Below are positions 2,625 to 45,225 of a stretch of 64,000 bases of DNA, piece after piece. The notes beneath the pieces were generated by a model. The model made no database searches and was not told where the DNA came from. It saw only the letters and a program-made list of their open reading frames with translations. How positions within the stretch are numbered: position 1 is the first letter of the stretch; each line of letters begins with the position of its first letter. The stretch comes from an uncultured Lachnospiraceae bacterium (lineage in GTDB: Bacteria; Bacillota; Clostridia; Lachnospirales; Lachnospiraceae): positions 372,001 to 436,000 of the forward strand of contig CAKXYI010000001.1 of the NCBI GenBank assembly GCA_934899185.1, written 5' to 3'. The position numbers and the translations under genes were made by a program.

Positions 2625-2646
2625 TCTATTCTCCTCAAATATCCCT

Positions 2647-7864: not shown

Positions 7865-7873
7865 AGTTTTCTC

Positions 7874-8857: not shown

Positions 8858-8860
8858 TGC

Positions 8861-9507: not shown

Positions 9508-9508
9508 T

Positions 9509-10474: not shown

Positions 10475-10518
10475 CTTTTCCTCCTATCCTACATCTATTG
10501 ATGTTTCTTTGCCTTTCG

Positions 10519-11946: not shown

Positions 11947-11962
11947 TATTTACGCTCATTTC

Positions 11963-14020: not shown

Positions 14021-14046
14021 GCCATCTAACTTCTCCTATTTTCCTA

Positions 14047-17543: not shown

Positions 17544-17549
17544 AATCTC

Positions 17550-18689
17550 TTAAGTTCTATCCTTTGCTTTATCTTCATATATGTCTATCAAATACTCTGA
17601 GCCAAATTCAATGGTTTTCATAGCATCCAAAATTCTTTGTGGATTATATGTACCGCTTTTTTCCTTTGAATCAAACAATATCTTAGGACTACTTGCCCTC
17701 ATTTCTTGCATGATTGTTGATGGATATGTAAAGTACACTTGAGTTCCATTCAGGATTCCAAGCAATAACTCCGCCGGCACATTCTTCGGTACCTCTATCA
17801 CTTCTACTCCATCCGGAAATTGATACGACATCTCATCTCTCGGATGTTTCTTAAGCAATAGTCTGCCTTTTCCCATTTTTCCCACAATGTACCGGACAAA
17901 ATCTTGTGTAATCTTCTCATCAACCTGAAGATCTTCTTTCAGCGGTGCGGTAAACAATGCATAATCTGCTTGTACCCCCGTGACATCATAATCAAATGTC
18001 TTTTCAACTAGGGCTTGATACGCTTTCTTGTCTACTAACGACATATCATTTAATTGAAAGATTTCCTTATAATCTCTATACAACAGTTTTTCTGGTCGCG
18101 AGGAAAATTTTACACATCTCTTTGTCGGCGCGAAATTATACATTGTTGTCGTATCCGCATATCCCAATTTTGACAAGATACATCCTGCAATCTCATATTG
18201 CCAACCCTCTCTTTTTATCCAATATCTCGTCGGCCAACTCCGATGCGGTTCATAATCTCTCGCTCCGTCTTCCAGCAACACCACTTCCAAGTACTTTGAT
18301 AAAACAACCAGTTCTCCCGAAAAAATAGTAGGTAAGAAAACAGTAACAATCTGTTTATATCTTTTACAATCAATCCATGGTTTTAATACTTTCGCACAAT
18401 ATTCTGGTTGGCGTCGCAAAATTGCATTCCATCCCATATCAATAACTGTTTTGATTTTTAACCACAACCCCTTATCAATATACGCGCCATCATAAATTGT
18501 AATTTCATGAAAAATTCCTGTATTTAACGCGAAATCATAAATTCTAACGCTCCAGTTTCCATTTAAATCCATACCTGCCGGTAAAATGAGCAAATCATAT
18601 TCATATTTCTTCTTTCCATAAGCCTCATAGTACCACAAAAAATCTAATAGAGATTTTGGAGACCATAATACCGCTAATGCTTTTTCCAT
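17550..18689 (-). CDS. Sialyltransferase-like glycosyltransferase (GT52/GT38-type motifs)
   Basis: A 379-residue protein, 6 bases upstream of neuD. It shows the three short motifs shared by bacterial sialyltransferases of families GT38, GT52 and GT80: an acidic E/D-D-G in LLEDGARDYE (about 140-142), HP in LLKKHPRDEM (282-283), and a serine/threonine pair in YPSTIMQE (about 324-325). The spacing fits the two-domain GT-B fold of that group. With the CMP-nonulosonate genes next door, transfer of the CMP-activated acid is the natural role. The start is set at 18689 because AAAGGA is 9 bases upstream; the ATG at 18698 abuts the ribosome site. The linkage and acceptor cannot be read from sequence. 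Confidence 0.7.
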   Translation of the reverse strand: MEKALAVLWSPKSLLDFLWYYEAYGKKKYEYDLLILPAGMDLNGNWSVRIYDFALNTGIFHEITIYDGAYIDKGLWLKIKTVIDMGWNAILRRQPEYCAKVLKPWIDCKRYKQIVTVFLPTIFSGELVVLSKYLEVVLLEDGARDYEPHRSWPTRYWIKREGWQYEIAGCILSKLGYADTTTMYNFAPTKRCVKFSSRPEKLLYRDYKEIFQLNDMSLVDKKAYQALVEKTFDYDVTGVQADYALFTAPLKEDLQVDEKITQDFVRYIVGKMGKGRLLLKKHPRDEMSYQFPDGVEVIEVPKNVPAELLLGILNGTQVYFTYPSTIMQEMRASSPKILFDSKEKSGTYNPQRILDAMKTIEFGSEYLIDIYEDKAKDRT

Positions 18690-18715
18690 ACTTGTCATTC
18701 CTTTAATGGTTTTAC

Positions 18716-19549
18716 TTAGAACCGTGACAATTCATCATATATTCCTTTTGGAACTGTAACACCTGTCTGTTCATATATTCTTTCATCACACTGGAAAAAT
18801 CTTTCAATGATATCCGGTTTTTCCCTCAAGAACTCTATCTTGCTGTTCCTGTGATAAAAACGATTTAAGTCCGCTACGATTTCTGTCAATGTCTGGTTCT
18901 CTTTACATACCACATTATAGATACCGGTCACATGTTCCCGAATCACTCCTGCCAAAATCTCCGACAGCGTGTTTATATGGATGTAATTCCTGTGAGCATC
19001 ACATTTTCCATAGATTGTTACCGTATCGTCCTTTTTTACTTTTTCCATCATGCCATATAGCAGCCTCTGATGAGTCGCAAACATATCCTCTCCATAAATA
19101 GCCGCCGGTCTCAAAATACACAAATCCACACGCATCTGCTCACAATAACATTCCAAAAATTCCTCTGCACTTTTTTTACTCTGTGCATAAAATCCATAGT
19201 AGGCATCATCCGCCCTATATGTTGCTGAGATAGATGACATATTTATAAATTGAGAAATCTGATATTGATGACAAATTTCCGCCAGATAAAGTGCTCCCAG
19301 TACATTCACATTTACCAAATCAAGAATCGCCTGATCCGTTGTATCATCAACCTGTGCCGACAGATTGATCAAAACATCACATCCTCGTAATTTATCTATG
19401 TCACCCTTTAACTCGCGTTCTTTTAGATCTATATATATATCTGCATCATTTCTTCTACCCAGTTTAACAAATTCAAATTGGGTATCATACCTAGATATGA
19501 ATCCCCTTCCCACACTGGATGAGTATCCGCAAATAGCAATTTTGCTCAT
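18716..19549 (-). CDS. Extended-SDR NAD(P)-dependent epimerase/dehydratase-like protein
   Basis: A 277-residue protein of the extended short-chain dehydrogenase type. The dinucleotide loop is atypical (GYSSSVGRGF instead of GxxGxxG), but NMSSIS with a YxxxK active-site pair (YAQSKK, about residue 160) is present, as is RPAAIYG downstream. It ends in a substrate domain with DECERIY-like closing segments. The likely role is reduction or epimerisation of a nucleotide-linked keto sugar, perhaps acting on the dTDP-4-keto-6-deoxyglucose branch. AGGAG is 6 bases before the start. It lies between an ATP-grasp gene and the sialyltransferase-like gene. Confidence 0.72.
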   Translation of the reverse strand: MSKIAICGYSSSVGRGFISRYDTQFEFVKLGRRNDADIYIDLKERELKGDIDKLRGCDVLINLSAQVDDTTDQAILDLVNVNVLGALYLAEICHQYQISQFINMSSISATYRADDAYYGFYAQSKKSAEEFLECYCEQMRVDLCILRPAAIYGEDMFATHQRLLYGMMEKVKKDDTVTIYGKCDAHRNYIHINTLSEILAGVIREHVTGIYNVVCKENQTLTEIVADLNRFYHRNSKIEFLREKPDIIERFFQCDERIYEQTGVTVPKGIYDELSRF

Positions 19550-19557
19550 TTTTTCTC

Positions 19558-20736
19558 CTATTCCAAAATGATTTTGATGCGCTCATTAAATGTCATAGCA
19601 GCCTGACGTATCTCATCGGGAGTATCATATTGATAATAAATATAGCCCAAGCGTTCGCTGAGATATTTTTCCAATATTTCTCCCTTGGAATACAATTCCA
19701 CATATTCAAACACATGGCTCATAATATCATCCGGTATTTCTGTACCCATGTACTTTCCATTTCTCTCTGCCATAATTGCATGATGCCCGGCATACTTAGC
19801 CATAGGTTCCTCTGCCTTCAATCCGCTACAATCCATCCCCAATTCAGCCATTACAAGCGCTTTATGGAATGGGAACCCTGTAACCGCAGTAACCGGTGTC
19901 AAAAACCGATTACCTAAGCATCTTCGCATAGTTTCAATCACATAAGGTTTGCCATCCTTCACGATATATTGGATAGTGATAAGACCATCCACTAAATCCA
20001 ATTTCCGAAACAGTTTCTCTGTTATTTCTACTAATTCATCTCTGACTTCAGAAAAATGATCGCTCGGCATTGTCTCTGTCTGTATCAAATACGGGTTAAT
20101 CGGTGAATAACAATTACATGCCGTGCAAGAAACCACTTTTTTACCGACTACAAAAGCCACAAACGATTCTTGATTTCCAACAATAAATGGTTCTATCACG
20201 ATTCTCTTCATTCGAGATTTTTCAAATGAGTTATGTATTGCCTCTATTGCCTCTGCACGATTGTCTGCGCGACAGATTCCAACACCACTGGTTTGATCTA
20301 CCGCCTTGCAAATAATCGGATACTCAACGCTATCCAAAAAAGCAACCGCATCTTTTTCCAGATCAAAACATGTAGACAGCGGTGAACGAATACCAAGTTT
20401 CACACACAATTCCTTAAATTGATCTTTCTCATGTAACAACATAGTGTTTTTGAGACTGTCATGCCCTTTCCATCCCATTTGCTCAGCAACATATGCAGCC
20501 GTAACCATCCCATAGTCATGTGCACAGGATACGATACCATCAATTTTTTCCTCTTTTACCATTTCTAATATCGCATCTTTGTCGGAATAGTCTGCCTGAA
20601 TATATTGATCTGCCTCTTTATGCCCAGGCATGTCCGGTCGATTGCCAGATGTTACCAAATAAACTCCTAATTGTTTCAGTTCTTTTATCAGCGGTTCTTC
20701 TGTATGTCCAGCGTTTAACAATAAGACTTTTTTCAT
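19558..20736 (-). CDS. ATP-grasp ligase (carbamoyl-phosphate synthase/PurK-like fold)
   Basis: A 392-residue ATP-grasp protein. The N-terminal Rossmann-like part (VLLLNAGHTEEPLIKELKQLG) is followed by the grasp domain: YPIICKAVDQTSGVGI (ATP lysine and glycine loop, about 138-153), IVIEPFIVGNQESFVAF, and IETMRRCLGNRF, where the usual metal-binding IE.N.R pattern has an R/C-containing variant. Such enzymes join a carboxylate to an amine with ATP. Together with the related gene at 21702-22844 and the aminotransferase at 22858 it may aminoacylate the 4-amino sugar. The substrate is unknown. Confidence 0.75.
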   Translation of the reverse strand: MKKVLLLNAGHTEEPLIKELKQLGVYLVTSGNRPDMPGHKEADQYIQADYSDKDAILEMVKEEKIDGIVSCAHDYGMVTAAYVAEQMGWKGHDSLKNTMLLHEKDQFKELCVKLGIRSPLSTCFDLEKDAVAFLDSVEYPIICKAVDQTSGVGICRADNRAEAIEAIHNSFEKSRMKRIVIEPFIVGNQESFVAFVVGKKVVSCTACNCYSPINPYLIQTETMPSDHFSEVRDELVEITEKLFRKLDLVDGLITIQYIVKDGKPYVIETMRRCLGNRFLTPVTAVTGFPFHKALVMAELGMDCSGLKAEEPMAKYAGHHAIMAERNGKYMGTEIPDDIMSHVFEYVELYSKGEILEKYLSERLGYIYYQYDTPDEIRQAAMTFNERIKIILE

Positions 20737-20741
20737 ACCCT

Positions 20742-21683
20742 TTATTCCTCATTCTCCTTTGCCACTTCCTTGACAATATACTGCGGTGTATTATTGATAC
20801 ACATATATATTCTTCCAACATATTCGCCTATCATTCCAAGGACACACAGAATAATTCCACTCATGAATAATAAAATTGCAATTGTAGAACTCCATCCCGC
20901 CGGAATGTTAGAAGCAACCAATTTTCTTATAATAATGAAAATTCCATAAACGAAGCCTACCAGTGCACTAAATACCCCCAAATAAGTTGCAATACGAAGC
21001 GGAACCACCGAAAAAGCTGTAAATCCGTTCATCCAAAGACTCATCAATTTGCGAAAAGAATAGCCCGATACACCATTTTGTCTGTCCAGTTGTTCGGTTT
21101 GAACCACTCCGATATTATGAGAGGTTCTTAATATCAAGCCGGGAATATGAGGATACGGATTATCATATTTGATAACTTCATCTATGATAAACCTCTTTGC
21201 CATAAAGAAAATGGAAACAGCAACTCCTTTTGGTGCTTTCAACAAAACTTCATTCATCCAATCACTCAACTTGGTTCCCATCTTTCTTATCAAGGATCTC
21301 TTGGATTTTGTCGTCCACTCGGTTGTGACTACATCATACCCCTCTTGAATTTTCTCCATCATTTCTCCGACCACTTCCATTTTGGTCTGACCATCATCAT
21401 CACTCACCACCACATAATCACCTGTTACATAGTGAAATCCAGCCATGATAGCCCCGTGCTGTCCGCAGTTCTTTGCCAGATTTATGCTGACAATATGTGC
21501 ATTTTCCTGCGCCATCTGCTTGATCAATTCCCATGTGTTATCTTTTGAGCAATCATTCACCAGGATAAACTCGTATTGTTCTACGGCTAATTCTTTAAAA
21601 ATTTCTATATCTTTCTGAATAACGCTCTGTATATTTTGTTCAGAATTGTAACATGGTATTACAACTGATAATTTTCCTTTCAC
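20742..21683 (-). CDS. GtrB/CsbB-like family 2 glycosyltransferase with two C-terminal membrane helices
   Basis: A 313-residue GT2 protein beginning MKGKLSVVIPCYNSEQN, with VNDCSKDNTWE, the metal motif VSDDDGQ and RQNGVSGYSFRKL, then two C-terminal helices (about 230-250 and 262-285). This layout is that of DPM1/GtrB/CsbB enzymes, which move a hexose from a nucleotide donor to undecaprenyl phosphate. I place the start at the GTG at 21683 because AAGGAG lies 6 bases upstream and it gives the family's usual N-terminus; the ATG at 21701 has no ribosome site. It probably supplies the lipid donor for the GT-C-like proteins of this operon. Confidence 0.87.
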   Translation of the reverse strand: MKGKLSVVIPCYNSEQNIQSVIQKDIEIFKELAVEQYEFILVNDCSKDNTWELIKQMAQENAHIVSINLAKNCGQHGAIMAGFHYVTGDYVVVSDDDGQTKMEVVGEMMEKIQEGYDVVTTEWTTKSKRSLIRKMGTKLSDWMNEVLLKAPKGVAVSIFFMAKRFIIDEVIKYDNPYPHIPGLILRTSHNIGVVQTEQLDRQNGVSGYSFRKLMSLWMNGFTAFSVVPLRIATYLGVFSALVGFVYGIFIIIRKLVASNIPAGWSSTIAILLFMSGIILCVLGMIGEYVGRIYMCINNTPQYIVKEVAKENEE

Positions 21684-21701
21684 AGCAATCTCCTTAAGCA
21701 T

Positions 21702-22844
21702 TTATTGCGCAACAAATTTTCGCGCTGATTCGTAATTATCAAAATACGTCAGGCAATATCCCCATCGACTTGCGCTATCTGTCACATCTGCCCCATCTTC
21801 AACTTCTATTTCATATGCAACCACTCTATCTCCGTGCTTATCAATGTACTTATTTATTTCCTCTTTATCAGAATGATTTAGGATAAAGCGAACCGCAGCA
21901 ACCTTTTTTGTATCTATAGGATTGATGTCCGGTTTCTCTCCTAAAGCACACTTAATTACTGCTTCTACAAAGTCAACTCCCGTAGATAGTTTTACCAAAT
22001 GGCTGCCTATGAAATCACCGCCCATACGACCGCCTATTTCTATAATTTTAATATTCCCATCCTCATCAATCTTGATTTCCGAATGAGATGCACCTACTTG
22101 AATACCTAAACTATCCAAAGCATGGCAAATGACGCGTTCGACTTTTTTCAACTGCTCGCCTTTAATATCGGCTGGTTGAATATGTCCCGTCTCGACATAC
22201 CCCGGTGCTCCTGTTGTAAATTTTTCCGTCAGGGCTAAAAATGTATGTTTCCCCTGCCAAGAAATAAATTCAACACTATATTCCTGCCCATCTGCAAATT
22301 CTTCGACTAGGGCTTTTTTCTCAAATCCCTGGTCTTTTGCCTTCTCAATCGCTGGTGCCAATTCCTCAAAATGATTTATTTTGGTAATGCCTCTGCTACC
22401 AGATCGATCCAATGGTTTCACAATCAAAGGATACTCTAATTCTATGTCTTTTAAGTCATCCACTGTTTCCACCAAAATACTCCTTGGTGATGGATCATCA
22501 TGCCTCTCGAAACATTTTCTCATCTCATGTTTATTTGTGGATACCAATCCTGTTTGTATGGAATTACCTGAAAGTCCCATCTTTTCTGCCACATAGCAAA
22601 CAGTAACCGCCGCCAGATCCGACGCTATCGTACAAATACCATCCACCTGGATTTCTTGGCATTTCTGTAATATTTCTTTTTTCTCCACAATACTGATAGG
22701 ATAAAAATAGTCTGCAAGTTTTTCTCCTACATCGCCCACCTGCCATGCAAATACATGTGTTTCTATCCCCATCTCTTTTGCTTTACTAATTAGGGGCTCC
22801 TGCAAATACGAAGCCCCTATAATTGCGATTTTTTTATTTTTCAT
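21702..22844 (-). CDS. ATP-grasp ligase (D-Ala-D-Ala ligase/PurK-like fold)
   Basis: A 380-residue ATP-grasp protein with KIAIIGASYLQEPLISKAKEMG at the N-terminus, YPLIVKPLDRSGSRGI (ATP-binding lysine and loop, about 139-154), ALVEEFADGQEYSVEFIS, and IKIIEIGGRMGGDFIG, the metal-binding motif. It is clearly related to the ligase at 19558-20736 but diverged. It lies between the WecE-type aminotransferase (13 bases) and the GtrB-like gene. Amide-bond formation between an amino sugar and a carboxylate is a reasonable inference. The ribosome site is weak (GTGGT). Confidence 0.77.
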   Translation of the reverse strand: MKNKKIAIIGASYLQEPLISKAKEMGIETHVFAWQVGDVGEKLADYFYPISIVEKKEILQKCQEIQVDGICTIASDLAAVTVCYVAEKMGLSGNSIQTGLVSTNKHEMRKCFERHDDPSPRSILVETVDDLKDIELEYPLIVKPLDRSGSRGITKINHFEELAPAIEKAKDQGFEKKALVEEFADGQEYSVEFISWQGKHTFLALTEKFTTGAPGYVETGHIQPADIKGEQLKKVERVICHALDSLGIQVGASHSEIKIDEDGNIKIIEIGGRMGGDFIGSHLVKLSTGVDFVEAVIKCALGEKPDINPIDTKKVAAVRFILNHSDKEEINKYIDKHGDRVVAYEIEVEDGADVTDSASRWGYCLTYFDNYESARKFVAQ

Positions 22845-22857
22845 TTTTCATACCACA

Positions 22858-23985
22858 TTATTTATAAAATGTCTTTATAAATTCGACTACCAAGTCGATC
22901 TCTATATCCTTAAGTCCATAATACATTGGCAATCTCATAAGTCTTTCACTTTCCTTTGTCGTGTACTTATCTTGTCCCACAAACTTTCCAAATCTTCTAC
23001 CTGCCGGTGCGCTATGTAATGGAATATAATGGAACACTGCTCCAACGCCATGGCTTTTCAAATACTCAATCAGTTTTGTTCTTTCTTCCAAATCCTTTGC
23101 CTTGATATAGAACATATGTGCATTATGTACACATTCCTCTGGAACATACGGCAGTTCAATATATCCAGCCTCTGCCAATGGCTTTAACATCTCATAATAC
23201 TGATTCCAACTATTCATGCGATCATCATAAATCTCCTGCGCCTTTTCTAGTTGTGCCCAGAGATATGCTGCGTTAAGCTCGCTTGGCAAATATGAGGATC
23301 CTGCATCAACCCATGTATATTTATCAATCTGTCCACGGAAGAACTTGCTTCGATTCGTACCCTTTTCACGGACAATTTCTGCCCGGTCAATGTAATCCGG
23401 ATTTTTAATCAGCAAAAGTCCGCCTTCGCCCATGCTATAATTCTTTGTTTCATGGAAACTATAACATCCGAAGTCGCCTATTGTACCGAGTGCTTTTCCC
23501 TTATATGTACTCATAACACCCTGTGCTGCATCCTCAACAACCAGAAGGTTATGTCTGCGTGCAATATCCATGATCGTATCCATCTCACAGGAAACTCCTG
23601 CGTAATGAACAGGAACGATTGCCCTGGTTTTTTTGGTAATCGCATCCTCAATCAACTTTTCATCTATATTCATCGTGTCCGGTCGGATATCTACGAATTT
23701 GACCCTAGCACCACGCAAAACAAAGGCATCTGCTGTCGATACAAAAGTATACGACGGCATAATGACTTCATCCCCCGGCTGAATATCCGCCAGAATGGCT
23801 GCCATCTCCGTCGCATGTGTACAAGAAGTCGTCAGTAACGCCTTTTCTGTTCCTGTAGTATCTTCAAACCACTTTGCACATCTCTTGCAAAAAGGTCCGT
23901 CACCGCATATTTTATGATTGCCAATCGCCTCGGCAATATACTTCTCTTCGTCTCCCACATGAGGCGGTACATTAAAATTAATCAT
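22858..23985 (-). CDS. rffA: dTDP-4-amino-4,6-dideoxygalactose transaminase (WecE/RffA type)
   Basis: A 375-residue PLP-dependent sugar aminotransferase, very close in my recollection to Escherichia coli WecE through most of its length: GDEVIMPSYTFVSTADAFV, VVEDAAQGVMSTYKG and FHETKNYS, where K181 is the PLP lysine. WecE converts dTDP-4-keto-6-deoxyglucose and glutamate to dTDP-Fuc4N. The rfbA fragment at the right edge of the window indicates that the dTDP-glucose pathway exists nearby. This is the first gene of the left operon: its ATG lies 27 bases outside the left inverted repeat and about 56 bases from the -10 box in the invertible segment. RBS AGAGAG. Confidence 0.9.
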   Translation of the reverse strand: MINFNVPPHVGDEEKYIAEAIGNHKICGDGPFCKRCAKWFEDTTGTEKALLTTSCTHATEMAAILADIQPGDEVIMPSYTFVSTADAFVLRGARVKFVDIRPDTMNIDEKLIEDAITKKTRAIVPVHYAGVSCEMDTIMDIARRHNLLVVEDAAQGVMSTYKGKALGTIGDFGCYSFHETKNYSMGEGGLLLIKNPDYIDRAEIVREKGTNRSKFFRGQIDKYTWVDAGSSYLPSELNAAYLWAQLEKAQEIYDDRMNSWNQYYEMLKPLAEAGYIELPYVPEECVHNAHMFYIKAKDLEERTKLIEYLKSHGVGAVFHYIPLHSAPAGRRFGKFVGQDKYTTKESERLMRLPMYYGLKDIEIDLVVEFIKTFYK

Positions 23986-24011
23986 AATTTCTCTCTTTCA
24001 GGGTAAACTAT

Positions 24012-24032
24012 CCTCATTGAAAACCAATAAGG
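24012..24032. repeat. Left 21-bp inverted repeat of the invertible segment
   Basis: This 21-base sequence begins CCTCATTGAAAACC and ends AATAAGG. It is the exact reverse complement of 26080-26100. The flanking bases differ on both sides, so the identity ends sharply, as expected for recombination sites. It lies in the expected 5' untranslated region of the left operon. Confidence 0.92.
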
Positions 24033-24040
24033 TCATTCCT

Positions 24041-24069
24041 ACTATACTCCTATTGTCGGATTTTGTCTA
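24041..24069 (-). promoter_or_regulatory. Outward-facing promoter inside the invertible segment, now driving the left operon
   Basis: On the minus strand TAGACA (24064-24069) and TATAGT (24041-24046) are separated by exactly 17 bases, each one mismatch from the sigma-70 consensus. The start point would fall next to the left repeat, which therefore becomes 5' leader. After inversion the same promoter would sit in front of rfbF at 26135. Confidence 0.75.
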
Positions 24070-24076
24070 GTTTGTG

Positions 24077-24120
24077 GAAAAATCAGATACCAAAGAATTT
24101 TCCATGATATCTGATTTTTC
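24077..24120 (-). terminator. Hairpin after the Rpn-family gene
   Basis: A perfect 13-bp stem (24077-24089 with 24108-24120, GAAAAATCAGATA and its complement) with an 18-base loop lies just after the nuclease stop codon and before the outward promoter. It has a T-rich arm but no long trailing T-run. It would insulate the promoter from recombinase/nuclease transcription. Confidence 0.5.
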
Positions 24121-24134
24121 TATCCCTATATTTG

Positions 24135-25025
24135 TTATCTAATGGTTTTCGCAAGAGCCAAGGTTTTTTCGTCAATACCTGTTTGTAAGATTTCTGCGTC
24201 AGATTTGCCGTTTCTTAGGAACTGAATGGCTTTGACCAGATCATTTTGTCCCTCAGATCTACCAACCAAGCGCCCCTCCAGCAGTCCCTCTTGAAGTCCT
24301 TCCAATCGTCCCTTGTTTTCAAGTCTTTCAGCAACGTCACACATATTCGTCACATCCTTTCCCTCATATGATAAAATTTCCTCATATCTATGATCTCCAG
24401 TCATTACAGATAGTAATTTTAATACCTCATCTACATGTTTTATTATTTTCCGATCATTCGGCACATAATCTTTATTTTTTCGCTTTTCACAGAAAAATCT
24501 TGCCACAATTCCAAAATCACTTTGAAACATATTGATTTGTTCTTCCGTCATCCACGCCACATTAACCACATGCATTTTATAATCATTGACATATTTATCA
24601 AGTCCTACCGGAATATCCAATAATTCTTTTAGGCTGGTTGGTTCATCCCATTTCTTTTGCGTCCCAAAATACAAGACCAAGGTTACAACTGGTATAGGTT
24701 TTATGTCCGAAGATAGAAGTTGGCTTCTATACGACATCCCATCATATCCTATAACTCTCAATGGCATATATTTTTCAACTTTCGTTTGATTTTCAATGCC
24801 ACAAATAGAAAGTGCCACATTCTGTTCTTTCCATATTTTAGAGATATCTCTTTCCAGTTCATGCAAGGCTGAATCTGCAGCTCGATACTGAGAATGCACT
24901 CCCGTATCTTGCAGTGACATTGGTTGTATTCTCTGTTGCCCTTTGAAAATAATGGTATTGAAGATATCGGCAAACACATCATTATAATCTTCAAGTATCT
25001 TTTCTGTTAAATCTTTCTCACCCAT
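24135..25025 (-). CDS. Rpn-family (PD-(D/E)XK) recombination-promoting nuclease/putative transposase
   Basis: A 296-residue protein of the Rpn/PF12784-type group. It has an N-terminal DVFADIFNTIIFKGQQRI segment, the core strands SICGIENQTKVEKYMPLRVIGYDGMSY, in which E and the Q/T-K pair form the nuclease active-site pattern, and PVVTLVLYFG. The C-terminus has the typical charged repeat-like helix (KGRLEGLQEGLLEGRLVGRSEGQ). Rpn proteins are known to cut DNA and promote recombination in E. coli, and some have been linked to phage defence. The start at 25025 follows GAGGGGGAG; a longer frame reaches back into the recombinase gene. It follows the recombinase by 47 bases inside the inverted repeats, which is unusual cargo for a promoter switch. 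Confidence 0.8.
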   Translation of the reverse strand: MGEKDLTEKILEDYNDVFADIFNTIIFKGQQRIQPMSLQDTGVHSQYRAADSALHELERDISKIWKEQNVALSICGIENQTKVEKYMPLRVIGYDGMSYRSQLLSSDIKPIPVVTLVLYFGTQKKWDEPTSLKELLDIPVGLDKYVNDYKMHVVNVAWMTEEQINMFQSDFGIVARFFCEKRKNKDYVPNDRKIIKHVDEVLKLLSVMTGDHRYEEILSYEGKDVTNMCDVAERLENKGRLEGLQEGLLEGRLVGRSEGQNDLVKAIQFLRNGKSDAEILQTGIDEKTLALAKTIR

Positions 25026-25046
25026 TTTACTCCCCCTCGTTTTTAT

Positions 25047-25065
25047 TGTTACCTGTATTGTAACA
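25047..25065. promoter_or_regulatory. Small inverted repeat between recombinase and nuclease genes
   Basis: TGTTAC and GTAACA (25047-25052 and 25060-25065) form a 6-bp dyad with a 7-base centre just before the nuclease ribosome site. It could be an operator or a weak attenuator. It is short enough to occur by chance. Confidence 0.2.
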
Positions 25066-25072
25066 CGGCTAA

Positions 25073-26032
25073 TCAACATATCTCAACTGTATTGCCTATC
25101 ATTTCCACAATTTCTCTTTTTTGCTCCATTCTGGGATGAACATAGCGATCCATGGTGATTTTTATAGAACTATGTCCAAGGATTTCACTGATGCATTTAT
25201 AATCGCCACCATTCTCAACACATCTTGTAGCGAATGTGTGTCTCGAGCAGTGAAAATTGCGATAGGGAATTTCTAGCCTATTCAAAATCTTTTCATAGAT
25301 TCTGCGATACTTTCTTGGCTCAAATGGTATTTTTGTACCACTTAGAAAATATAAATCCCCATCGATGCCAAAATCCTGCATGTCTCGGATTAGTTGGCAG
25401 ATACTACTTGATAAGGGGATGAGTCGAATGGACGAAATCGACTTCGGTGCCGTGATAACCAACTTCGTGCGTGGTATGCTTTCCTTATTATATATACGTT
25501 GAAGGGTTTTGGTAATATAAACCACCTGATTCTCCATATCAATGTCCTTCCATTGCAAGGCACAGATCTCGCCAATACGCAGACCACTGCTCAGGCACAG
25601 GGCAATGCCTACAACCTGAGGTGTAAGATCTGTCGTAGCATAACGGATAATTTTCTGTTGTTCGGCAGCAGTGAAGATATATTCTTCTTCCCAATTTGCT
25701 TTTTGTTTCTTATTGGGTGCGATGTAGATATGCACCTTAAATTGCGTCAGATAACCTTTGCGCACAGCATAGTTCAATGTCTGCTTTACAAGCACGACCC
25801 AATTTTGTATCACGCTGTTTTTTCTTGGTTTACCATCACGCAGACGCATTTCCTGCCATTGAAATGTACATTCCTGCAATATTTCTTCTGTGATATCAAC
25901 TAGTTCATACTCTTCCAGCATAGGGAGGATGTAGGTACACATTTCATAGGCATACAAGGCATAGGTCGATTCCTTCACATAACGCTTCTTTTCTTTCAGC
26001 CATTCTTCCGCTAATTCTTTATACTTCATCAT
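25073..26032 (-). CDS. Tyrosine site-specific recombinase (probable invertase of the flanking repeats)
   Basis: A 319-residue phage-integrase-family protein. It has an N-terminal SAM-like core-binding domain (about 1-105) and a complete catalytic domain: R152 in SGLRIGEICALQW, K197 in TAPKSISSIRLIP, H261-x-x-R264 in HCSRHTFATR, H287 in LGHSS and the nucleophile Y297 in MDRYVH. All six signature residues are present, so it should be active. The start is set at 26032 because AGGAGG is 7 bases upstream; the ATG at 26038 abuts it. Its promoter's -35 box overlaps the right inverted repeat. Its position inside perfect inverted repeats points to self-directed inversion. It lacks excisionase or phage neighbours. 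Confidence 0.92.
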   Translation of the reverse strand: MMKYKELAEEWLKEKKRYVKESTYALYAYEMCTYILPMLEEYELVDITEEILQECTFQWQEMRLRDGKPRKNSVIQNWVVLVKQTLNYAVRKGYLTQFKVHIYIAPNKKQKANWEEEYIFTAAEQQKIIRYATTDLTPQVVGIALCLSSGLRIGEICALQWKDIDMENQVVYITKTLQRIYNKESIPRTKLVITAPKSISSIRLIPLSSSICQLIRDMQDFGIDGDLYFLSGTKIPFEPRKYRRIYEKILNRLEIPYRNFHCSRHTFATRCVENGGDYKCISEILGHSSIKITMDRYVHPRMEQKREIVEMIGNTVEIC

Positions 26033-26064
26033 TTTCATTCCTCCTGCAAAATATTTTCCACTCT

Positions 26065-26095
26065 ATTATAAATTTCTGTCCTTATTGGTTTTCAA
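26065..26095 (-). promoter_or_regulatory. Recombinase promoter overlapping the right inverted repeat
   Basis: On the minus strand TTGAAA (26090-26095, inside the repeat) and TATAAT (26065-26070) are separated by 19 bases, slightly long. Because the -35 box lies in the repeat, it is restored in both orientations of the segment, and recombinase binding at the repeat would also repress its own promoter. Confidence 0.5.
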
Positions 26096-26100
26096 TGAGG
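26080..26100. repeat. Right 21-bp inverted repeat of the invertible segment
   Basis: This sequence begins CCTTATTGGTTTTC and is the exact reverse complement of 24012-24032. It ends 34 bases before the rfbF start codon, so it would be the leader of the right operon when the promoter is flipped. Confidence 0.92.
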
Positions 26101-26134
26101 TCACATTACACAAGAAAGATTAAGAGGATATGTT

Positions 26135-26917
26135 ATGAAGGTAGTTTTACTGGCTGGTGGCTTAGGCACGCGCATCAGCGAAGAAAGCCATTTGCGCCCA
26201 AAGCCAATGGTCGAAATAGGAGGCAAGCCAATCCTTTGGCACATCATGAAAGAATACTCCTACTACGGATTAAATGAATTTATCATCTGTGCAGGATATA
26301 AGCAGCATGTCATCAAAGAATGGTTTTCAGACTATTATCTGCACAACAGTGATATCACCTTTGATTTTACAAATGGAGGCGTCACAGAGATACATAGCAA
26401 TGTTGCCGAGCCGTGGAAAGTCACGATCGTTGACACCGGGCTTAATACCATGACCGGCGGACGTGTAAAGCGCATCCAGAAATATGTCGGAGATGAACCT
26501 TTTATGCTCACCTACGGAGACGGCGTATCTGATATCAATATTCAGGAACTACTCAAATACCATCAGGAAAAAGGCAAACTTGCCACTATGACTGCGGTTC
26601 GTGTCAGCCAGCGTTTTGGCGTCTTAGACATCGACAAGAATACTATGTCAGTCAAGTCATTCCGCGAAAAATCCGAAGCCGATGTATCCCGCATCAATGC
26701 CGGGTACATGGTCTTAGAACCGGAAGTATTTAACTACATTGATGGTGATGACACCGTATTCGAACAGGCGCCTTTACGCACACTTGCCAAAGAGGGGCAA
26801 CTTGTCGCCTACAAATACAATGGTTTTTGGCAGTGTATGGATACCAAACGTGAAATGGAAGAACTTGACAAGATGATCGCAGACGGCACTGCCCCTTGGA
26901 TGGTTTGGGAGAAGTAG
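26135..26917 (+). CDS. rfbF: Glucose-1-phosphate cytidylyltransferase
   Basis: A 260-residue nucleotidyltransferase beginning MKVVLLAGGLGTRISEES, with LRPKPMVEIGGKPILWHIM and the downstream SDINIQELL and GFWQCMDTKREMEEL segments typical of RfbF. It makes CDP-glucose from CTP and glucose-1-phosphate, the entry to 3,6-dideoxyhexoses. Length matches the family. It is the first gene of the right operon. AGAGGA lies 8 bases before the ATG, and the right inverted repeat lies directly upstream. Only 34 bases separate repeat and start, with no promoter visible there. Confidence 0.95.
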   Translation: MKVVLLAGGLGTRISEESHLRPKPMVEIGGKPILWHIMKEYSYYGLNEFIICAGYKQHVIKEWFSDYYLHNSDITFDFTNGGVTEIHSNVAEPWKVTIVDTGLNTMTGGRVKRIQKYVGDEPFMLTYGDGVSDINIQELLKYHQEKGKLATMTAVRVSQRFGVLDIDKNTMSVKSFREKSEADVSRINAGYMVLEPEVFNYIDGDDTVFEQAPLRTLAKEGQLVAYKYNGFWQCMDTKREMEELDKMIADGTAPWMVWEK

Positions 26918-26920
26918 TTT

Positions 26921-27994
26921 ATGAAATTAGATTTAAAATGGTTTAAAGATAAAAAGATACTCGTCACCGGACATACCGGTTTTAAGGGTTCCTGGCTGTG
27001 CAAGATCTTGATCGATGCAGGTGCGGAAGTGACTGGATATTCCCTAGCCCCATCTACGACGCCCGCCCTTTTTTACATCGCTGATATTGAAAACAAGATG
27101 AACTCTATCATAGGCGATATCCGTGATCTGAATCACCTAATGAAAGTTTTTGATCAGGTACAGCCGGAGATCGTATTGCATCTGGCAGCCCAGCCTATTG
27201 TCCGTGATTCTTACAAGGATCCTGTCTACACATACGAAACAAATGTCATGGGGACCGTCAACATCTGTGAATGTGTACGATTACACCCCTGCGTCAAATC
27301 ATTTTTGAATGTGACAACGGACAAGGTCTATCAAAATAATGAATGGGAATGGGGCTATCGTGAAAACGAGCCTTTGGATGGATTTGATCCCTATTCCAAT
27401 AGCAAATCATGCTCCGAATTGGTGACACACTCTTATATCAACTCCTTTTTCTGTGACCGGGAACTTGCTGTTTCCACAGCCCGCGCTGGAAATGTGATCG
27501 GCGGCGGCGATTTTGCCAATGATCGTATCATCCCGGATTGTGTGCGTGCTGCCATGGTCGGACGTGATATTGTTGTGCGCAATCCGCACTCCACCAGACC
27601 TTATCAGCATGTATTAGAACCGCTCTATATGTATCTGATGATCGCCAAGGGACAGTATGAAAATCGAAATCTTGCCGGATTTTATAATGTCGGTCCGGAC
27701 GACTGCGACTGCGTTACCACCGGCGAATTGGTAGATCTTTTCTGTGCATCCTGGAATAAGGACAACCTTAGCAGTCCTATCAAATGGATTGATCAGGCAG
27801 AAGTTAATGCCCCACACGAGGCAAACTTTTTAAAACTGGATTGTTCCAAGATCAAACATACCTTTGGATGGTCTCCGCGCTGGGGCGTAAAGGATGCCAT
27901 CGCAAAGACCGTGGAATGGTCAAAAATATATGCCGCAAATGGTGACATTTCCGGATGTATGGAAAAGCAAATAAAAGAATTTTTTGATATTTAA
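26921..27994 (+). CDS. rfbG: CDP-glucose 4,6-dehydratase
   Basis: A 357-residue extended-SDR enzyme with the NAD loop VTGHTGFKGSWL, VTTDKVYQN and the active-site YxxxK in DPYSNSKSCSE (about residue 159). RfbG converts CDP-glucose to CDP-4-keto-6-deoxyglucose. It starts 3 bases after rfbF, with GGGAG about 10 bases upstream of the ATG. The motif set is complete and the family length is normal. Confidence 0.94.
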   Translation: MKLDLKWFKDKKILVTGHTGFKGSWLCKILIDAGAEVTGYSLAPSTTPALFYIADIENKMNSIIGDIRDLNHLMKVFDQVQPEIVLHLAAQPIVRDSYKDPVYTYETNVMGTVNICECVRLHPCVKSFLNVTTDKVYQNNEWEWGYRENEPLDGFDPYSNSKSCSELVTHSYINSFFCDRELAVSTARAGNVIGGGDFANDRIIPDCVRAAMVGRDIVVRNPHSTRPYQHVLEPLYMYLMIAKGQYENRNLAGFYNVGPDDCDCVTTGELVDLFCASWNKDNLSSPIKWIDQAEVNAPHEANFLKLDCSKIKHTFGWSPRWGVKDAIAKTVEWSKIYAANGDISGCMEKQIKEFFDI

Positions 27995-28010
27995 AAACAG
28001 GAGATCCTAT

Positions 28011-29360
28011 ATGTCAGATTGGAAGAACGAAACTGAAGCACGCGAGCAGATCAAATCGCTCGTCGCAGAATACTACGAAAAATATAAAAAGCCTGAACAG
28101 GAAAAAGAATTTGTACCCGGAGATCGTCTCTCCTATGCATCTCGCGTTTACGACGAAAAAGAGATGTGTGCGCTCACAGATGCCACACTCGACTTTTGGC
28201 TAACCACCGGTCGCTTCGCAGATCAATTTGAGAAAGAATTTGCCGCATGGATCGGTGTCAAATGGGCACACCTGGTAAACAGCGGATCCTCTGCCAATTT
28301 GATCGCCTTTATGGCACTAACTGCACCGGAACTCGGTGATCGTCAGATCAAAAAAGGTGACGAGATCATCACCGTCGCCTGCGGATTTCCGACAACAATA
28401 ACACCTGCCATCCAATATGGTGCTGTCCCGGTTTTTGTAGACGTGACAGTACCGCAGTACAACATTGACGTCAACCAGTTAGAAACTGCCCTGTCTCCTA
28501 AGACAAAGGCTGTCATGATCGCACATACTCTGGGCAATCCTTTTGACCTGAAGGCTGTTCGTGCTTTCTGCGACAAACATAACCTTTGGCTCGTGGAAGA
28601 CAACTGTGATGCCCTTGGAACCAAGTACACCATTGACGGCGAGACACGTTTTTCCGGTACATGGGGTGACATCGGAACCAGCAGTTTTTATCCACCACAC
28701 CATATGACTATGGGCGAAGGTGGATGTGTATATACCAACAATCCACTCCTCCATCGCATGATCCTTTCTTTCCGCGACTGGGGACGTGATTGTATCTGCC
28801 CATCCGGACAGGATAACTTCTGTGGGCATCGTTTTGACGGACAGTACGGAGAACTGCCGACAGGATACGACCATAAATATGTATACAGTCATTTTGGATA
28901 CAACTTGAAGGTGACAGATATGCAGGCAGCCGTTGGCTGTGAACAGTTAAAGAAGTTCCCTTCTTTCATTGAACGCAGACGCCATAACTGGGATCGCCTG
29001 CGCAAAAACTTGGAAGATGTACAGAACAAGATCATTCTTCCTGAGCCTGCCGAAAACAGTGAGCCATCCTGGTTCGGATTTTTGATCAGTGTACGTGACG
29101 AAAGCGGTCTGGATCGAAATCAAGTGACCAAGTACATAGAGGATCATAATGTCCAGACACGTCTTCTGTTTAGCGGTAACCTGATCAAGCATCCATGTTT
29201 TGACCAGATCCGTGGTACGGATGCTTATCGCGTGGTCGGCAGTCTGGATACAACCGATTATGTAATGACTCACACTTTCTGGGTTGGTGTATATCCGGGA
29301 ATGACTGACGAAAAGATTGACTATATGGCACAAGTAATCAAAGAGGCTGTAAATCAATAG
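28011..29360 (+). CDS. rfbH: CDP-6-deoxy-4-keto-hexulose 3-dehydrase (E1), PMP-dependent
   Basis: A 449-residue protein of the aminotransferase fold with the two hallmarks of the 3-dehydrase. The usual PLP lysine is replaced by histidine in SFYPPHHMTMGEGG (H230/H231), and three cysteines for the [2Fe-2S] cluster lie in RDCICPSGQDNFC (C261, C263, C271). It removes the C3 hydroxyl on the way to a CDP-3,6-dideoxyhexose and needs a reductase partner (E3) that I do not see in the window. The start at 28011 has AGGAG 6 bases upstream; an in-frame start at 27984 would overlap rfbG and lacks a good site. Confidence 0.95.
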   Translation: MSDWKNETEAREQIKSLVAEYYEKYKKPEQEKEFVPGDRLSYASRVYDEKEMCALTDATLDFWLTTGRFADQFEKEFAAWIGVKWAHLVNSGSSANLIAFMALTAPELGDRQIKKGDEIITVACGFPTTITPAIQYGAVPVFVDVTVPQYNIDVNQLETALSPKTKAVMIAHTLGNPFDLKAVRAFCDKHNLWLVEDNCDALGTKYTIDGETRFSGTWGDIGTSSFYPPHHMTMGEGGCVYTNNPLLHRMILSFRDWGRDCICPSGQDNFCGHRFDGQYGELPTGYDHKYVYSHFGYNLKVTDMQAAVGCEQLKKFPSFIERRRHNWDRLRKNLEDVQNKIILPEPAENSEPSWFGFLISVRDESGLDRNQVTKYIEDHNVQTRLLFSGNLIKHPCFDQIRGTDAYRVVGSLDTTDYVMTHTFWVGVYPGMTDEKIDYMAQVIKEAVNQ

Positions 29361-29383
29361 CCGGATGTAAGTGAGGGGAAATT

Positions 29384-31216
29384 TTGAAAATAAGATTAGC
29401 TGATTATGTGGCAGATTTTTTAGTGGCACATGGGGTCACGGATTGTTTCAGTGTCGTTGGTGGTGGCGCTATGCATTTAAATGACGCGCTCGGTCACAAA
29501 GACGGTCTTACCGTGACCTACAATCACCATGAGCAGGCTTGCGCCATTGCAGCAGAAGCCTACGCTCGCATTGATAATCGCATTGCGGCTGTATGTGTCA
29601 CAACAGGTCCCGGTGGGACAAACGCTCTTACCGGTGTTCTCGGTGGATGGTTAGATTCCATCCCTATGTTTATCATCAGCGGTCAGGTGCGCTACGACAC
29701 AACTGCTCGCTACGCTTTGCAATACACCGAAACACCGCTCCGCGCCATGGGAGATCAGGAATACGACATCGTAAAATCTGTCACACCTATGACAAAATAT
29801 GCAACGATGATCGAAGATCCTTTGCAGATTCGCTATGGTCTTGAAAAAGCCTGGCATCTTGCCACAACCGGGCGTCCTGGACCTGTCTGGATCGATATTC
29901 CTGTGAATTATCAGGGATCCTATATCGAGACAGAAGACTTGACCGGCTATGATCCTGCGGAGGATGATGCCCTTTTACCTCCACCGATATCCCAAGACCT
30001 TGTCCATAAGGTACTGTATGCTATCTCACAGGCAAAAAGACCTGTGATCCACGCCGGTTACGGTATTCGTTTATCAGGGGCTTATGACATCTTCCGCTCG
30101 GTGATGGAAAAACTAAACATCCCGGTTGTGACCTATTGGAATGCTATTGATCTCATTGAAGATGCGCATCCACTGTATGTAGGTCGTGCCGGAAATATGG
30201 GCGATCGCCCGGGAAACTGGGCAATTCAAAATGCTGATCTTGTCATTGCGATCGGAACACGCATTTCCATCCGTCAGGTTGGCTATAACTGGAAAACCTG
30301 GGCGCGTGCTGCAAAGGTGATCATGGTAGATATTGATCAGGCAGAACTTAAAAAGCCCACCTTGCACGTAGACATGCCGATCTGGGCAGATGCCAAAGAT
30401 TTTCTTACTCAGTTAAACAGTGCGATCACACAAGAGCCTGTTTTTCAAAATAGGATCTGGCTTGATGCCTGCCAGAATTGGAAAAAGAATTATCCGGTTG
30501 TACAGCCAAAGCAATGGGAAGAAAACGGACGTACTGCTAACGTTTATGCCTTTGTGCATTATCTCAGCAGTCAGTTACCGGAAAACTCTCTTACGGCGGT
30601 TTCCAATGGTGCCTGCTGTGTCGTTGGGCATCAGACCTATGTCATCAAGAAAGGCAGTCGATTTGCCAACAACAGTGCTGTCGCCAGTATGGGCTATGGG
30701 CTTCCAGCTGCTATTGGCACTTGTATCGCCGGTGGACGAGCCGAGACGATATGCTTGGAAGGCGATGGCAGTATCATGATGAACTTACAGGAACTGCAAA
30801 CCATCATCACCAACAAATTACCGATCAAGATCTTCCTTATCAACAATAGCGGCTACCACTCTATTCGCATTACACAGTCCAATCTGTTTAGCGAACATTG
30901 TAAGGTTGGCATCGGTGAGGAATCCGGTGATCTGTCTTTTCCTGCTTTCCGAAAAATTGCAGATGCCTTTGGTTTTCCATATTACGAAGCACATTCCAAT
31001 GCTTCCATGAAAGAAACAGTAGATAAGGTGCTTGCCCTTGATGGTCCGGTATTCTGTGAAATCTATACCGACACAGAGCAGCGCTGGGAACCGAAAAGCA
31101 GTACCAAGCGTCTGGAAGATGGCACGCTGGTCAGTCCACCCCTTGAGGATCTGGCGCCGTTTTTGCCAAGAGAAGAACTCAAAGAAATTATGTTTATCCC
31201 TCTCCTGGAGGAATAA
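29384..31216 (+). CDS. TPP-dependent enzyme, YerE-like (acetolactate-synthase fold)
   Basis: A 610-residue thiamine-diphosphate enzyme. The activating glutamate is E50 in NHHEQACAIAAEAYAR. TTGPGGTNALTGV follows, and the cofactor motif GDGSIMMNLQELQT ends with LINN. Directly after rfbFGH, the expected member is YerE, which adds a two-carbon acetyl unit from pyruvate to C4 of CDP-3,6-dideoxy-4-ketohexose in yersiniose synthesis. The fold and neighbours support a branched-sugar role; strict orthology is not proven. The start is a TTG at 29384 with GAGGGG about 5 bases before it. A housekeeping acetolactate synthase is less likely here. Confidence 0.8.
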   Translation: MKIRLADYVADFLVAHGVTDCFSVVGGGAMHLNDALGHKDGLTVTYNHHEQACAIAAEAYARIDNRIAAVCVTTGPGGTNALTGVLGGWLDSIPMFIISGQVRYDTTARYALQYTETPLRAMGDQEYDIVKSVTPMTKYATMIEDPLQIRYGLEKAWHLATTGRPGPVWIDIPVNYQGSYIETEDLTGYDPAEDDALLPPPISQDLVHKVLYAISQAKRPVIHAGYGIRLSGAYDIFRSVMEKLNIPVVTYWNAIDLIEDAHPLYVGRAGNMGDRPGNWAIQNADLVIAIGTRISIRQVGYNWKTWARAAKVIMVDIDQAELKKPTLHVDMPIWADAKDFLTQLNSAITQEPVFQNRIWLDACQNWKKNYPVVQPKQWEENGRTANVYAFVHYLSSQLPENSLTAVSNGACCVVGHQTYVIKKGSRFANNSAVASMGYGLPAAIGTCIAGGRAETICLEGDGSIMMNLQELQTIITNKLPIKIFLINNSGYHSIRITQSNLFSEHCKVGIGEESGDLSFPAFRKIADAFGFPYYEAHSNASMKETVDKVLALDGPVFCEIYTDTEQRWEPKSSTKRLEDGTLVSPPLEDLAPFLPREELKEIMFIPLLEE

Positions 31217-31231
31217 AAAGGATCTTAATAT

Positions 31232-32146
31232 ATGAAAAAAGTAATTGTAACCGGGCCTACGGGTGCTATCGGCGTGGCGTTGATCCAAGAACTGATCACA
31301 AATAATGTAAAAGTTTATGCCGTATGCCGAAAAGACTCCAAACGCAAACGCAACATTCCCTCTCACCCACTGGTTGAGATAATTGATTGCGATTTGGATC
31401 AACTACATCATTTGCATGAACAAATACCGTCTCCATGTGATGTTTTTTATCATTTTGGCTGGGCGGCAACGATTGGTTCCGGTCGTAATGATACTTCATT
31501 ACAATTACATAATATTCAATACACCTTGGATGCCGTAGATGCCGCGCATGCTCTCGGTTGCAGACGTTTTATCGGTGCCGGTTCGCAGGCCGAATATGGA
31601 CGCGTTGAAGGAAAGATTTCCGCTTCAACACCTACTTTTCCGGAGAATGGATATGGCATTGCCAAACTATGTGCCGGGCAAATGAGTCGTATCCGTTGTG
31701 AGCAACTTGGCATGGAACACATCTGGACCAGAGTTCTCAGTATTTATGGTCCTTGCGATGGACCGAACACCATGATCCGCTCGACCATACACCAATTACT
31801 TGCAGGGCAAAAACCCGCTTTGACCGCAGGACTGCAAGAATGGGATTATCTGTATGCCAAAGATGCCGGTCTGGCTTTTTACCTTCTCGGCAAAGCCGGT
31901 CAAGCCGGAAAAGTTTACTGCATCGGCAGTGGTCGTGCTACAGAACTTAAGAATTATATAAACATCCTGCGAGATGCAATTGATCCCAGTTTGCCGTTAG
32001 GACTTGGCGAAATTCCCTATAGCCCTCTGCAAGTCATGCATCTGGAAGCAGATATTAGTGATTTACAACAAGATACCGGTTTTATACCACGCTATTCTTT
32101 TGAGAAAGGAATCCAAGAAACGATCCAGTGGTGCAAACATCACTAG
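31232..32146 (+). CDS. Extended-SDR NAD(P)-dependent reductase/epimerase
   Basis: A 304-residue SDR with the loop VTGPTGAIGVALI and the catalytic YxxxK in ENGYGIAKLCAGQ (about residue 141). AEYGRVEGKIS provides the substrate-side motif. After a YerE-like enzyme it may be the YerF-type reductase that finishes the branched sugar, or a C4 reductase of the AbeA/RfbJ kind. AAAGGA is 9 bases before the start. It is a paralogue of the protein at 36830-37747: both share the ends GIGDIPY/GLGEIPY and DTGFIPR. Confidence 0.82.
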   Translation: MKKVIVTGPTGAIGVALIQELITNNVKVYAVCRKDSKRKRNIPSHPLVEIIDCDLDQLHHLHEQIPSPCDVFYHFGWAATIGSGRNDTSLQLHNIQYTLDAVDAAHALGCRRFIGAGSQAEYGRVEGKISASTPTFPENGYGIAKLCAGQMSRIRCEQLGMEHIWTRVLSIYGPCDGPNTMIRSTIHQLLAGQKPALTAGLQEWDYLYAKDAGLAFYLLGKAGQAGKVYCIGSGRATELKNYINILRDAIDPSLPLGLGEIPYSPLQVMHLEADISDLQQDTGFIPRYSFEKGIQETIQWCKHH

Positions 32147-32166
32147 GAAGTTTTCCACATAAACCT

Positions 32167-33099: not shown

Positions 33100-33120
33100 T
33101 AATTTATGGAGATTTCAAAC

Positions 33121-34581: not shown

Positions 34582-34590
34582 GGAGTTTCT

Positions 34591-35613: not shown

Positions 35614-35615
35614 AT

Positions 35616-38885: not shown

Positions 38886-38898
38886 GGAGATCATCTTC

Positions 38899-42178: not shown

Positions 42179-42221
42179 AGAGCGTATAATGCCTTAATTG
42201 TATTAAGGCATTATACGCTCT
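42179..42221. terminator. Bidirectional hairpin between convergent operons
   Basis: A perfect 19-bp stem (42179-42197 with 42203-42221) with a five-base TTGTA loop lies 14 bases after the YfhO gene and 55 bases after the convergent zinc-protein gene. There is no strong T-run on either side, but the stem is very stable and the position fits termination from both directions. Confidence 0.75.
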
Positions 42222-45189: not shown

Positions 45190-45225
45190 AACTTTTCACG
45201 CTTTCATAAAATAATTATCCGATTG

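What the first reader, a model, noticed from the sequence alone, without database searches (positions are those of the whole stretch)
24012..26100. Self-encoded invertible promoter switch between two divergent polysaccharide operons
Seen directly: perfect 21-bp inverted repeats (24012-24032, 26080-26100), a complete tyrosine recombinase between them, and a TAGACA-17-TATAGT promoter at 24041-24069 pointing out through the left repeat into a 22-kb glycan operon. The right repeat abuts a second, divergent 16-kb glycan operon with no visible promoter of its own. Flipping would turn the left operon off and the right one on. Most known capsule invertons switch one operon on or off; an exclusive two-operon selector that carries its own recombinase would be a stronger device.
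Basis: partly seen in the sequence, partly recalled or inferred. Interest (0 to 1): 0.95.

Follow-up and report, generated by a model that had tools for sequence, protein, structure and literature searches.

The report
Self-flipping switch between two glycan operons
In a bacterium likely of the gut family Lachnospiraceae, a 2-kb DNA segment that carries its own recombinase gene lies between two head-to-head sugar-coat operons and is predicted to flip, so that its one predicted outward promoter would switch on only one of the two coats at a time.

Summary
The gaps to the first start codons outside are 26 and 34 nt, too short for a full sigma-70 promoter. Comparison adds most. Three Lachnospiraceae relatives (L002, L003, L005) share the layout: recombinase, inverted sites, outward promoter-like sequence at the recombinase's 3' side, glycan genes running away on both sides. 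Site arms are shared (CCTTATT-N7-AATAAGG); the 7-bp spacer is identical within a locus but differs between loci, as strand exchange by a tyrosine recombinase would require. The window's left-operon head is homologous to L005's left operon, yet the promoter end faces it here and the recombinase end faces it there: both orientations at homologous junctions, but in different species. Inversion within one strain was not seen and could not be tested. One clade relative (L176) lacks the sites. Most likely this is an exclusive selector between a nonulosonic (sialic-acid-type) and a 3,6-dideoxyhexose glycan: a new variant of the invertible-promoter kind.

The parts
24012..24032 (.). Left recombination site CCTCATT-GAAAACC-AATAAGG (arms 24012-24018 and 24026-24032, 7-bp spacer 24019-24025)
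   Evidence: arms shared with L002, L003, L005
26080..26100 (.). Right recombination site, inverted copy (arms 26080-26086 and 26094-26100, spacer 26087-26093)
25073..26038 (-). Tyrosine recombinase, 321 aa; residues Arg154, His263, Arg266, His289, Tyr299 invariant in 10 aligned relatives (their catalytic role is recalled family knowledge)
   Evidence: PF00589 E 3.3e-26; alignment; PDB matches include Int protein 6en0
24135..25079 (-). Rpn/YhgA-like gene (PF04754), start overlaps the recombinase stop by 7 bp; role unknown, likely cargo or a modulator
   Evidence: E 2.3e-6
24077..24120 (-). Hairpin with an A-tract before and a T-tract at its end, likely terminator between the recombinase transcript and the promoter
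   Evidence: -22.8 kcal/mol, z -5.9; not flagged by the terminator scan
24041..24069 (-). Predicted outward promoter TAGACA-17-TATAGT; start site expected near 24034 (inferred)
   Evidence: 10 of 12; 0.013 of 300 shuffles as good; register test
26065..26095 (-). Possible recombinase promoter TTGAAA-19-TATAAT, its -35 inside the right site (weak, inferred; the spacing is long)
   Evidence: read; the scored scan was not better than shuffles (0.25)
1929..23985 (-). Left glycan operon, 20 genes, first gene WecE-type transaminase (22858-23985), with NeuB-, NeuC- and CMP-sugar-synthase-type genes at 14047-16917; predicted ON in the sequenced orientation
26135..42165 (+). Right glycan operon, 12 genes, RfbF, RfbG, RfbH, TPP enzyme, epimerases, glycosyltransferases, UDP-galactopyranose mutase, YfhO; predicted OFF in the sequenced orientation
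42179..42221 (.). 20-bp perfect hairpin just past the right operon; could end transcripts from both sides
   Evidence: flagged on the minus strand

Best explanation
A 2.09-kb segment bounded by two identical 21-bp inverted sites, carrying a tyrosine recombinase gene and lying between two head-to-head glycan operons, is likely flipped by that recombinase so that its one predicted outward promoter would drive either the left or the right operon but not both. Shown by sequence: the sites, the open recombinase frame, the hairpin, the divergent operons, and gaps of 26 and 34 nt that leave no room for a full sigma-70 promoter outside the segment. Inferred: the recombinase (with or without the coupled Rpn-like protein) pairs the two sites, exchanges strands in the identical 7-bp spacer and inverts the segment; transcription starts at the inner edge of the promoter-proximal site, so the site becomes part of the mRNA leader. 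In the sequenced orientation the left (nonulosonic-acid-type) operon would be ON and the right (CDP-3,6-dideoxyhexose-type) operon OFF; after inversion the reverse. The recombinase reads away from the OFF operon and the hairpin lies between its transcript and the promoter, so read-through would not blur the choice.
For: Perfect 21-bp inverted sites, beyond chance. Open recombinase frame with the conserved residues. L002, L003 and L005 share the layout, with glycan-type genes running away from both sites. Shared arms, spacers identical within a locus and different between loci: window GAAAACC, L002 TGGAGCG, L003 TTTAAAT, L005 ATAATCA. The outward promoter-like sequence of the window, L001, L002 and L003 ends 6-7 nt before GACC of the site; this register is the best of 200 offsets (summed match 35 against mean 23.1, sd 3.0; with L005 included 40 against 28.7, sd 3.1). 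No rightward promoter near rfbF. Homologous wecE operon heads face the promoter end in the window and the recombinase end in L005 (WecE 75%, ATP-grasp 56% aa; 68.6% DNA identity over 2,097 columns, ending at the site).
Against: No inverted read, clone or same-species relative was available. L176, in the same recombinase clade, shows no site pair (17 of 24 against a shuffle maximum of 18). L001's pair matches only 19 of 24, which unrelated loci L010 and L012 also reach in the same scan, its spacers differ, and only one side has an outward operon. Taken singly the promoter scores of L001, L002 and L003 are ordinary (0.39, 0.137, 0.317 of 300 shuffles as good), L005's promoter lies about 21 nt from GACC instead of 6-7, and in L002 the recombinase-side end scores as high as the promoter end (10.5 each). 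The loci are related by descent, so the register test is not four independent trials. The opposite orientations are in species whose recombinases share only 40%.
Confidence: 0.8

Rival explanations
1. A one-operon ON/OFF switch: the segment flips, but only the wecE operon depends on it; the rfbF operon is transcribed by other means, such as a non-sigma-70 promoter or an internal start.
For: ON/OFF switching of one operon is the usual form for capsule invertons (PMC8375218 passages; PMC13343947 passages), and L001 has an outward operon on one side only.
Against: 34 nt between the right site and the rfbF start codon, no rightward promoter-like hit nearby, and outward glycan genes on both sides in L002, L003 and L005.
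Confidence: 0.1
2. A decayed or locked switch: the sites and recombinase are relics and the promoter stays facing the wecE operon.
For: No inversion was observed; related wecE proteins P0125-P0127 have N-terminal ORF extensions that fit the promoter-side upstream sequence better than the flipped one (63-64 against 56-57 of 96 nt), a weak hint of the same orientation elsewhere.
Against: The 21-bp sites are perfect, the recombinase frame is open with conserved residues, and relatives at 79-99% identity keep full-length frames.
Confidence: 0.07
3. A mobile element inserted by chance between two operons, the inverted repeats being its termini.
For: The second gene differs between loci (Rpn-like here, PF09820 plus PF08011 in L001, AAA in L002), like cargo. 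Of 38 wecE loci examined only one has an adjacent recombinase, and that is the L005 locus (at least one of the 38, L227, has almost no upstream DNA).
Against: No direct repeat of 12 nt or more flanks the segment. Chance insertion would not put an outward promoter in a fixed register at one end, nor operon starts within tens of bases of both ends in several species.
Confidence: 0.03

Closest known systems
Invertible promoters of Bacteroides capsule operons (Mpi-type; PMC8375218, passages seen)
   Same: Promoter between inverted repeats in front of a capsule operon; phase variation of the coat.
   Different: Per those passages: segments of about 185 bp with 10-bp repeats, one operon each, serine recombinases encoded elsewhere. 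Here: 2.09 kb, 21-bp sites, tyrosine recombinase inside, an operon on each side.
Akkermansia muciniphila cps1 inverton (PMC13343947, abstract and passages seen)
   Same: Phase-variable capsule by inversion in a gut commensal.
   Different: ON/OFF of one locus; the word recombinase does not occur in the main text (0 occurrences).
Salmonella Hin segment (recalled; only named in PMC11868660 passages)
   Same: Recombinase gene and outward promoter inside the invertible segment.
   Different: Serine recombinase; one operon in cis and the alternative controlled in trans (recalled).
Recombinase-enclosing inverton next to a Providencia stuartii fimbrial locus (PMC5903667, section 13 read)
   Same: Invertible segment of 844 bp that encloses a recombinase ORF.
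   Different: Fimbrial neighbour; no two-operon choice is described in that section.
Single-promoter gene choice in mycoplasmas and ureaplasmas (vsp, vpma; PMC3047005 passages) and Campylobacter fetus sap (recalled)
   Same: Inversion links one promoter to one of several alternative surface genes.
   Different: Single surface-protein genes, not two complete glycan operons selected by a cassette with an internal recombinase.

Membership tests
DNA inverton / invertible promoter | Pair of inverted repeats bounding the segment | tested here: met
DNA inverton / invertible promoter | Promoter inside, pointing out through one repeat | tested here: inconclusive
   Predicted only: searches (10 of 12; 0.013 of shuffles), register test; activity not measurable here
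DNA inverton / invertible promoter | Both orientations found at the same locus | tested here: inconclusive
   Opposite orientation at a homologous operon head in another species (L005); no same-species relative was reachable
DNA inverton / invertible promoter | Orientation changes transcription of the neighbours | not testable with these tools
   needs RNA data
Tyrosine recombinase (PF00589) | Family profile match and conserved Arg, His-x-x-Arg, His, Tyr | tested here: met
Hin / Mpi serine-invertase systems | Serine recombinase | tested here: not met
   Pfam finds PF00589 and PF14659 in the recombinase and PF04754 in the second gene, no serine-recombinase domain
Transposon or integrative element | Direct repeats (target duplication or att sites) flanking the element | tested here: not met
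   No direct-repeat family at the segment ends (region 22500-27500, minimum 12 nt; shorter duplications not excluded)

The most novel reading that the evidence does not exclude
Lachnospiraceae carry a family of self-contained selector cassettes (own tyrosine recombinase, one promoter, a pair of sites with shared arms but a private spacer) that yoke two whole, unrelated glycan operons head to head, so that a cell makes exactly one of two coats. The private spacers keep cassettes from recombining with each other, and partner operons are exchanged between cassettes over evolution.
Probability: 0.5. Interest if true: 0.78.

Novelty: new variant of a known kind. Interest (0 to 1): 0.66.

Why it matters
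Phase variation of coats is usually framed as on/off. A cis-wired either/or choice between two complete glycans, with its own recombinase, would ensure that a cell wears one coat and only one. The predicted alternatives, a sialic-acid-type glycan and a 3,6-dideoxyhexose glycan, would look very different to phages and to the host. The cassette is compact, its site grammar (shared arms, private spacer) is explicit, and existing long-read gut metagenomes could be searched for the opposite junctions.

Tried and rejected
Own genome: not held. Viral contigs: best recombinase relative 40%, no match to the site. Whole-genome searches for closer recombinases (at E <= 1e-60 or 1e-62): 3 of 15 genomes, 3 of 12, 3 of 15 (the same 15), 1 of 37, 6 of 397, 4 of 392; none closer than 49%. 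In some searches at most 5 candidates per genome were scored, so misses are possible. Site-pattern search (one mismatch): 24 of 397 genomes with one match each and no pairs; the reversed-pattern control also matched in many genomes (not tallied), so these look like chance. The pattern is strict: L001's own genome, which was in the set, does not match it.

Screens for inverted repeats around the 80 loci. One search looked only 1.5 kb downstream and set 5 loci aside as too short; it missed L001 and L002, which came from the wider scan (seven loci). Other integrases with flanking inverted repeats of 20 bp or more (L022, L040, L045, L049, L076, L078) were not followed up; L040 and L049 may be contig or coding artefacts. 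L169-L172, L176, L179, L204 and L205 gave no site pair; L205's contig begins at the gene, and for L169 and L173, whose match is on the minus strand, the windows scanned were not turned round. L175/L177 (39%, one stop) was listed for ORFs but not screened for sites.

N-terminal extensions of wecE relatives P0125-P0127 were matched by back-translation to both orientations: promoter side 63, 64, 64 of 96 nt (shuffle maxima 59, 57, 57), flipped 56, 57, 57 (shuffle maxima 58, 60, 56). The flipped version is also near its shuffle maximum because it shares the site; only suggestive. Rfam and tRNA scans were empty. Jiang 2019 (PMC6543533) is not held.

Full report
Observation. The repeats are beyond chance: 21 bp against a maximum of 14 in 1,000 mononucleotide shuffles. 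The segment also holds an Rpn/YhgA-like gene (PF04754, 24135-25079) whose start overlaps the recombinase stop, and a hairpin (24077-24120, z -5.9) between that gene and the promoter, which the terminator scan did not flag. Read from right to left the order is: site, recombinase, Rpn-like gene, hairpin, outward promoter, site.

Wiring. The left operon (23985 to 1929, minus strand, 20 genes) starts 26 nt outside the left site; the right operon (26135 to 42165, plus strand, 12 genes) starts 34 nt outside the right site. A full sigma-70 promoter does not fit in either gap, and one search lists no rightward promoter-like hit starting between 25103 and 27310. The left operon's one long gap (234 bp) holds a short ORF below the ORF-list cut-off that looks like an acyl carrier protein, and one search finds neither promoter nor terminator there. 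The left operon encodes a WecE-type transaminase and NeuB- and NeuC-type enzymes above their curated cut-offs, a CMP-sugar-synthase-type enzyme below its cut-off and a Wzx-like protein. The right operon encodes RfbF, RfbG and RfbH above cut-off, a TPP enzyme of the acetolactate-synthase type below cut-off, epimerases and UDP-galactopyranose mutase. That the right set suggests a branched 3,6-dideoxyhexose such as yersiniose is recalled pathway knowledge.

Relatives. Four of its top five are Lachnospiraceae, L001, L002, L003 and L005 (49-40% identity), and were read in detail. L002, L003 and L005 have clear inverted sites around the recombinase (22, 22 and 24 of 24). L001's pair scores 19 of 24, which the unrelated loci L010 and L012 also reach in that scan; I accept it as a decayed pair only because it sits at the same place with the same GACC edge. 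In L002, L003 and L005 genes of glycan type run away from both sites: L002 RfbF/RfbG-type left and sugar transferase right; L003 glycerophosphotransferase-type genes on both sides, its first left gene without a Pfam match; L005 WecE-type left and Gfo/Idh plus hexose dehydratase right. In L001 only one side does. A tree of 36 recombinases puts the window, L001, L002, L003, L005 and L176 in a 23-row clade with support 100/100, apart from the Bacteroidales relatives; L005 sits on a long branch. Of these five clade relatives with DNA, three have a clear pair, L001 a doubtful one, and L176 none (17 of 24 against a shuffle maximum of 18).

Site grammar. The shared form is CCTTATT-N7-AATAAGG, usually followed by TC. 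The 7-bp spacer is the same in the two sites of one locus and differs between loci: GAAAACC in the window, TGGAGCG in L002, TTTAAAT in L003, ATAATCA in L005; in L001 the two differ (TTTAAAT, TTTAATA). Identity within a locus is what strand exchange by a tyrosine recombinase requires, and what drift would destroy.

Promoter. Scored alone against 300 shuffles of its 76-bp end, as good a match occurs in 0.013 for the window and 0.003 for L005, but in 0.137, 0.317 and 0.39 for L002, L003 and L001. Tested together at a common distance from the site, the summed match peaks 6-7 nt before GACC, the best of 200 offsets (35 against mean 23.1, sd 3.0, four loci; 40 against 28.7, sd 3.1, with L005). The loci are related, so this is not a set of independent trials. 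L005's own best promoter lies farther away, about 21 nt from GACC. At the recombinase 5' end the best outward match is ordinary in the window, L001, L003 and L005; in L002 it scores as high as the promoter end (10.5 each).

Both orientations. The window's wecE operon head matches the left operon of L005 (WecE 75%, ATP-grasp 56% aa; DNA 68.6% over 2,097 columns, window 21954-24034, ending at the site). In the window the promoter end faces it; in L005 the recombinase end does. The window's rfb operon matches the left operon of L002 (RfbF 68%, RfbG 66%, TPP enzyme 48%, epimerase 49%, glycosyltransferase 48%), and the recombinase end faces it in both. So the wecE-type head is found in both states and the rfb-type head so far in one. 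These are different species, so this is indirect support for inversion, not a demonstration. Of 38 wecE loci examined (three further matches had no locus), one has an adjacent recombinase, the L005 locus itself: the cassette is an occasional addition, not a fixed part of wecE operons.

Literature. Ten searches showed no paper that describes an invertible segment with its own recombinase selecting between two divergent glycan operons; they cover open-licence PMC papers only, most listed papers were seen only as listings, and Jiang 2019 is not held. A recombinase-enclosing inverton (PMC5903667, section 13 read) and single-promoter gene choices (PMC3047005, passages) are in print, so each ingredient is known and the combination is what appears new.

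Not shown: inversion in a strain, promoter activity, the role of the Rpn-like gene, the host species (wecE relatives at 79% are named Roseburia; the closest recombinase loci are Lachnospiraceae).

Noticed in passing
window 43662-48210: Candidate phage-defence genes between glycan loci: a large helicase matching MkoC of PADLOC (E 5.5e-268) and an ATPase matching AbiLi (E 2.8e-45).
   Followed up: partly
window 54223-63783: A third glycan locus with ABC export genes (Wzt_C 56928-58286, ABC2_membrane 58270-59673), outside the switch, homologous (63% and 58% aa) to genes in L001.
   Followed up: partly
window 24135-25079: The Rpn-like gene is coupled to the recombinase; other cassettes carry different nuclease- or ATPase-type genes at this place (L001 PF09820 plus PF08011, L002 AAA). 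Role in inversion untested.
   Followed up: partly
L178 6167-7318: A recombinase of 40% identity, outside the clade, is flanked by a 23-of-24 inverted pair with different arms, next to a gene that reads like a capsule-type PHP phosphatase (judged by eye): perhaps a one-sided relative.
   Followed up: partly
L005 9910-9964 and 11001-11055: The inverted repeat extends past the site into the leaders of both operons, ribosome-binding region included, so both operons would share nearly the same 5' leader.
   Followed up: partly
window 23985-24020: An ATG in the left site opens a short upstream frame that overlaps the wecE start; relatives P0123 and P0124 are annotated as starting there, fused in frame.
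   Followed up: no
L022 9847 and 12328: A 48-bp perfect inverted repeat flanks a related integrase in a Bacteroidales MAG.
   Followed up: no
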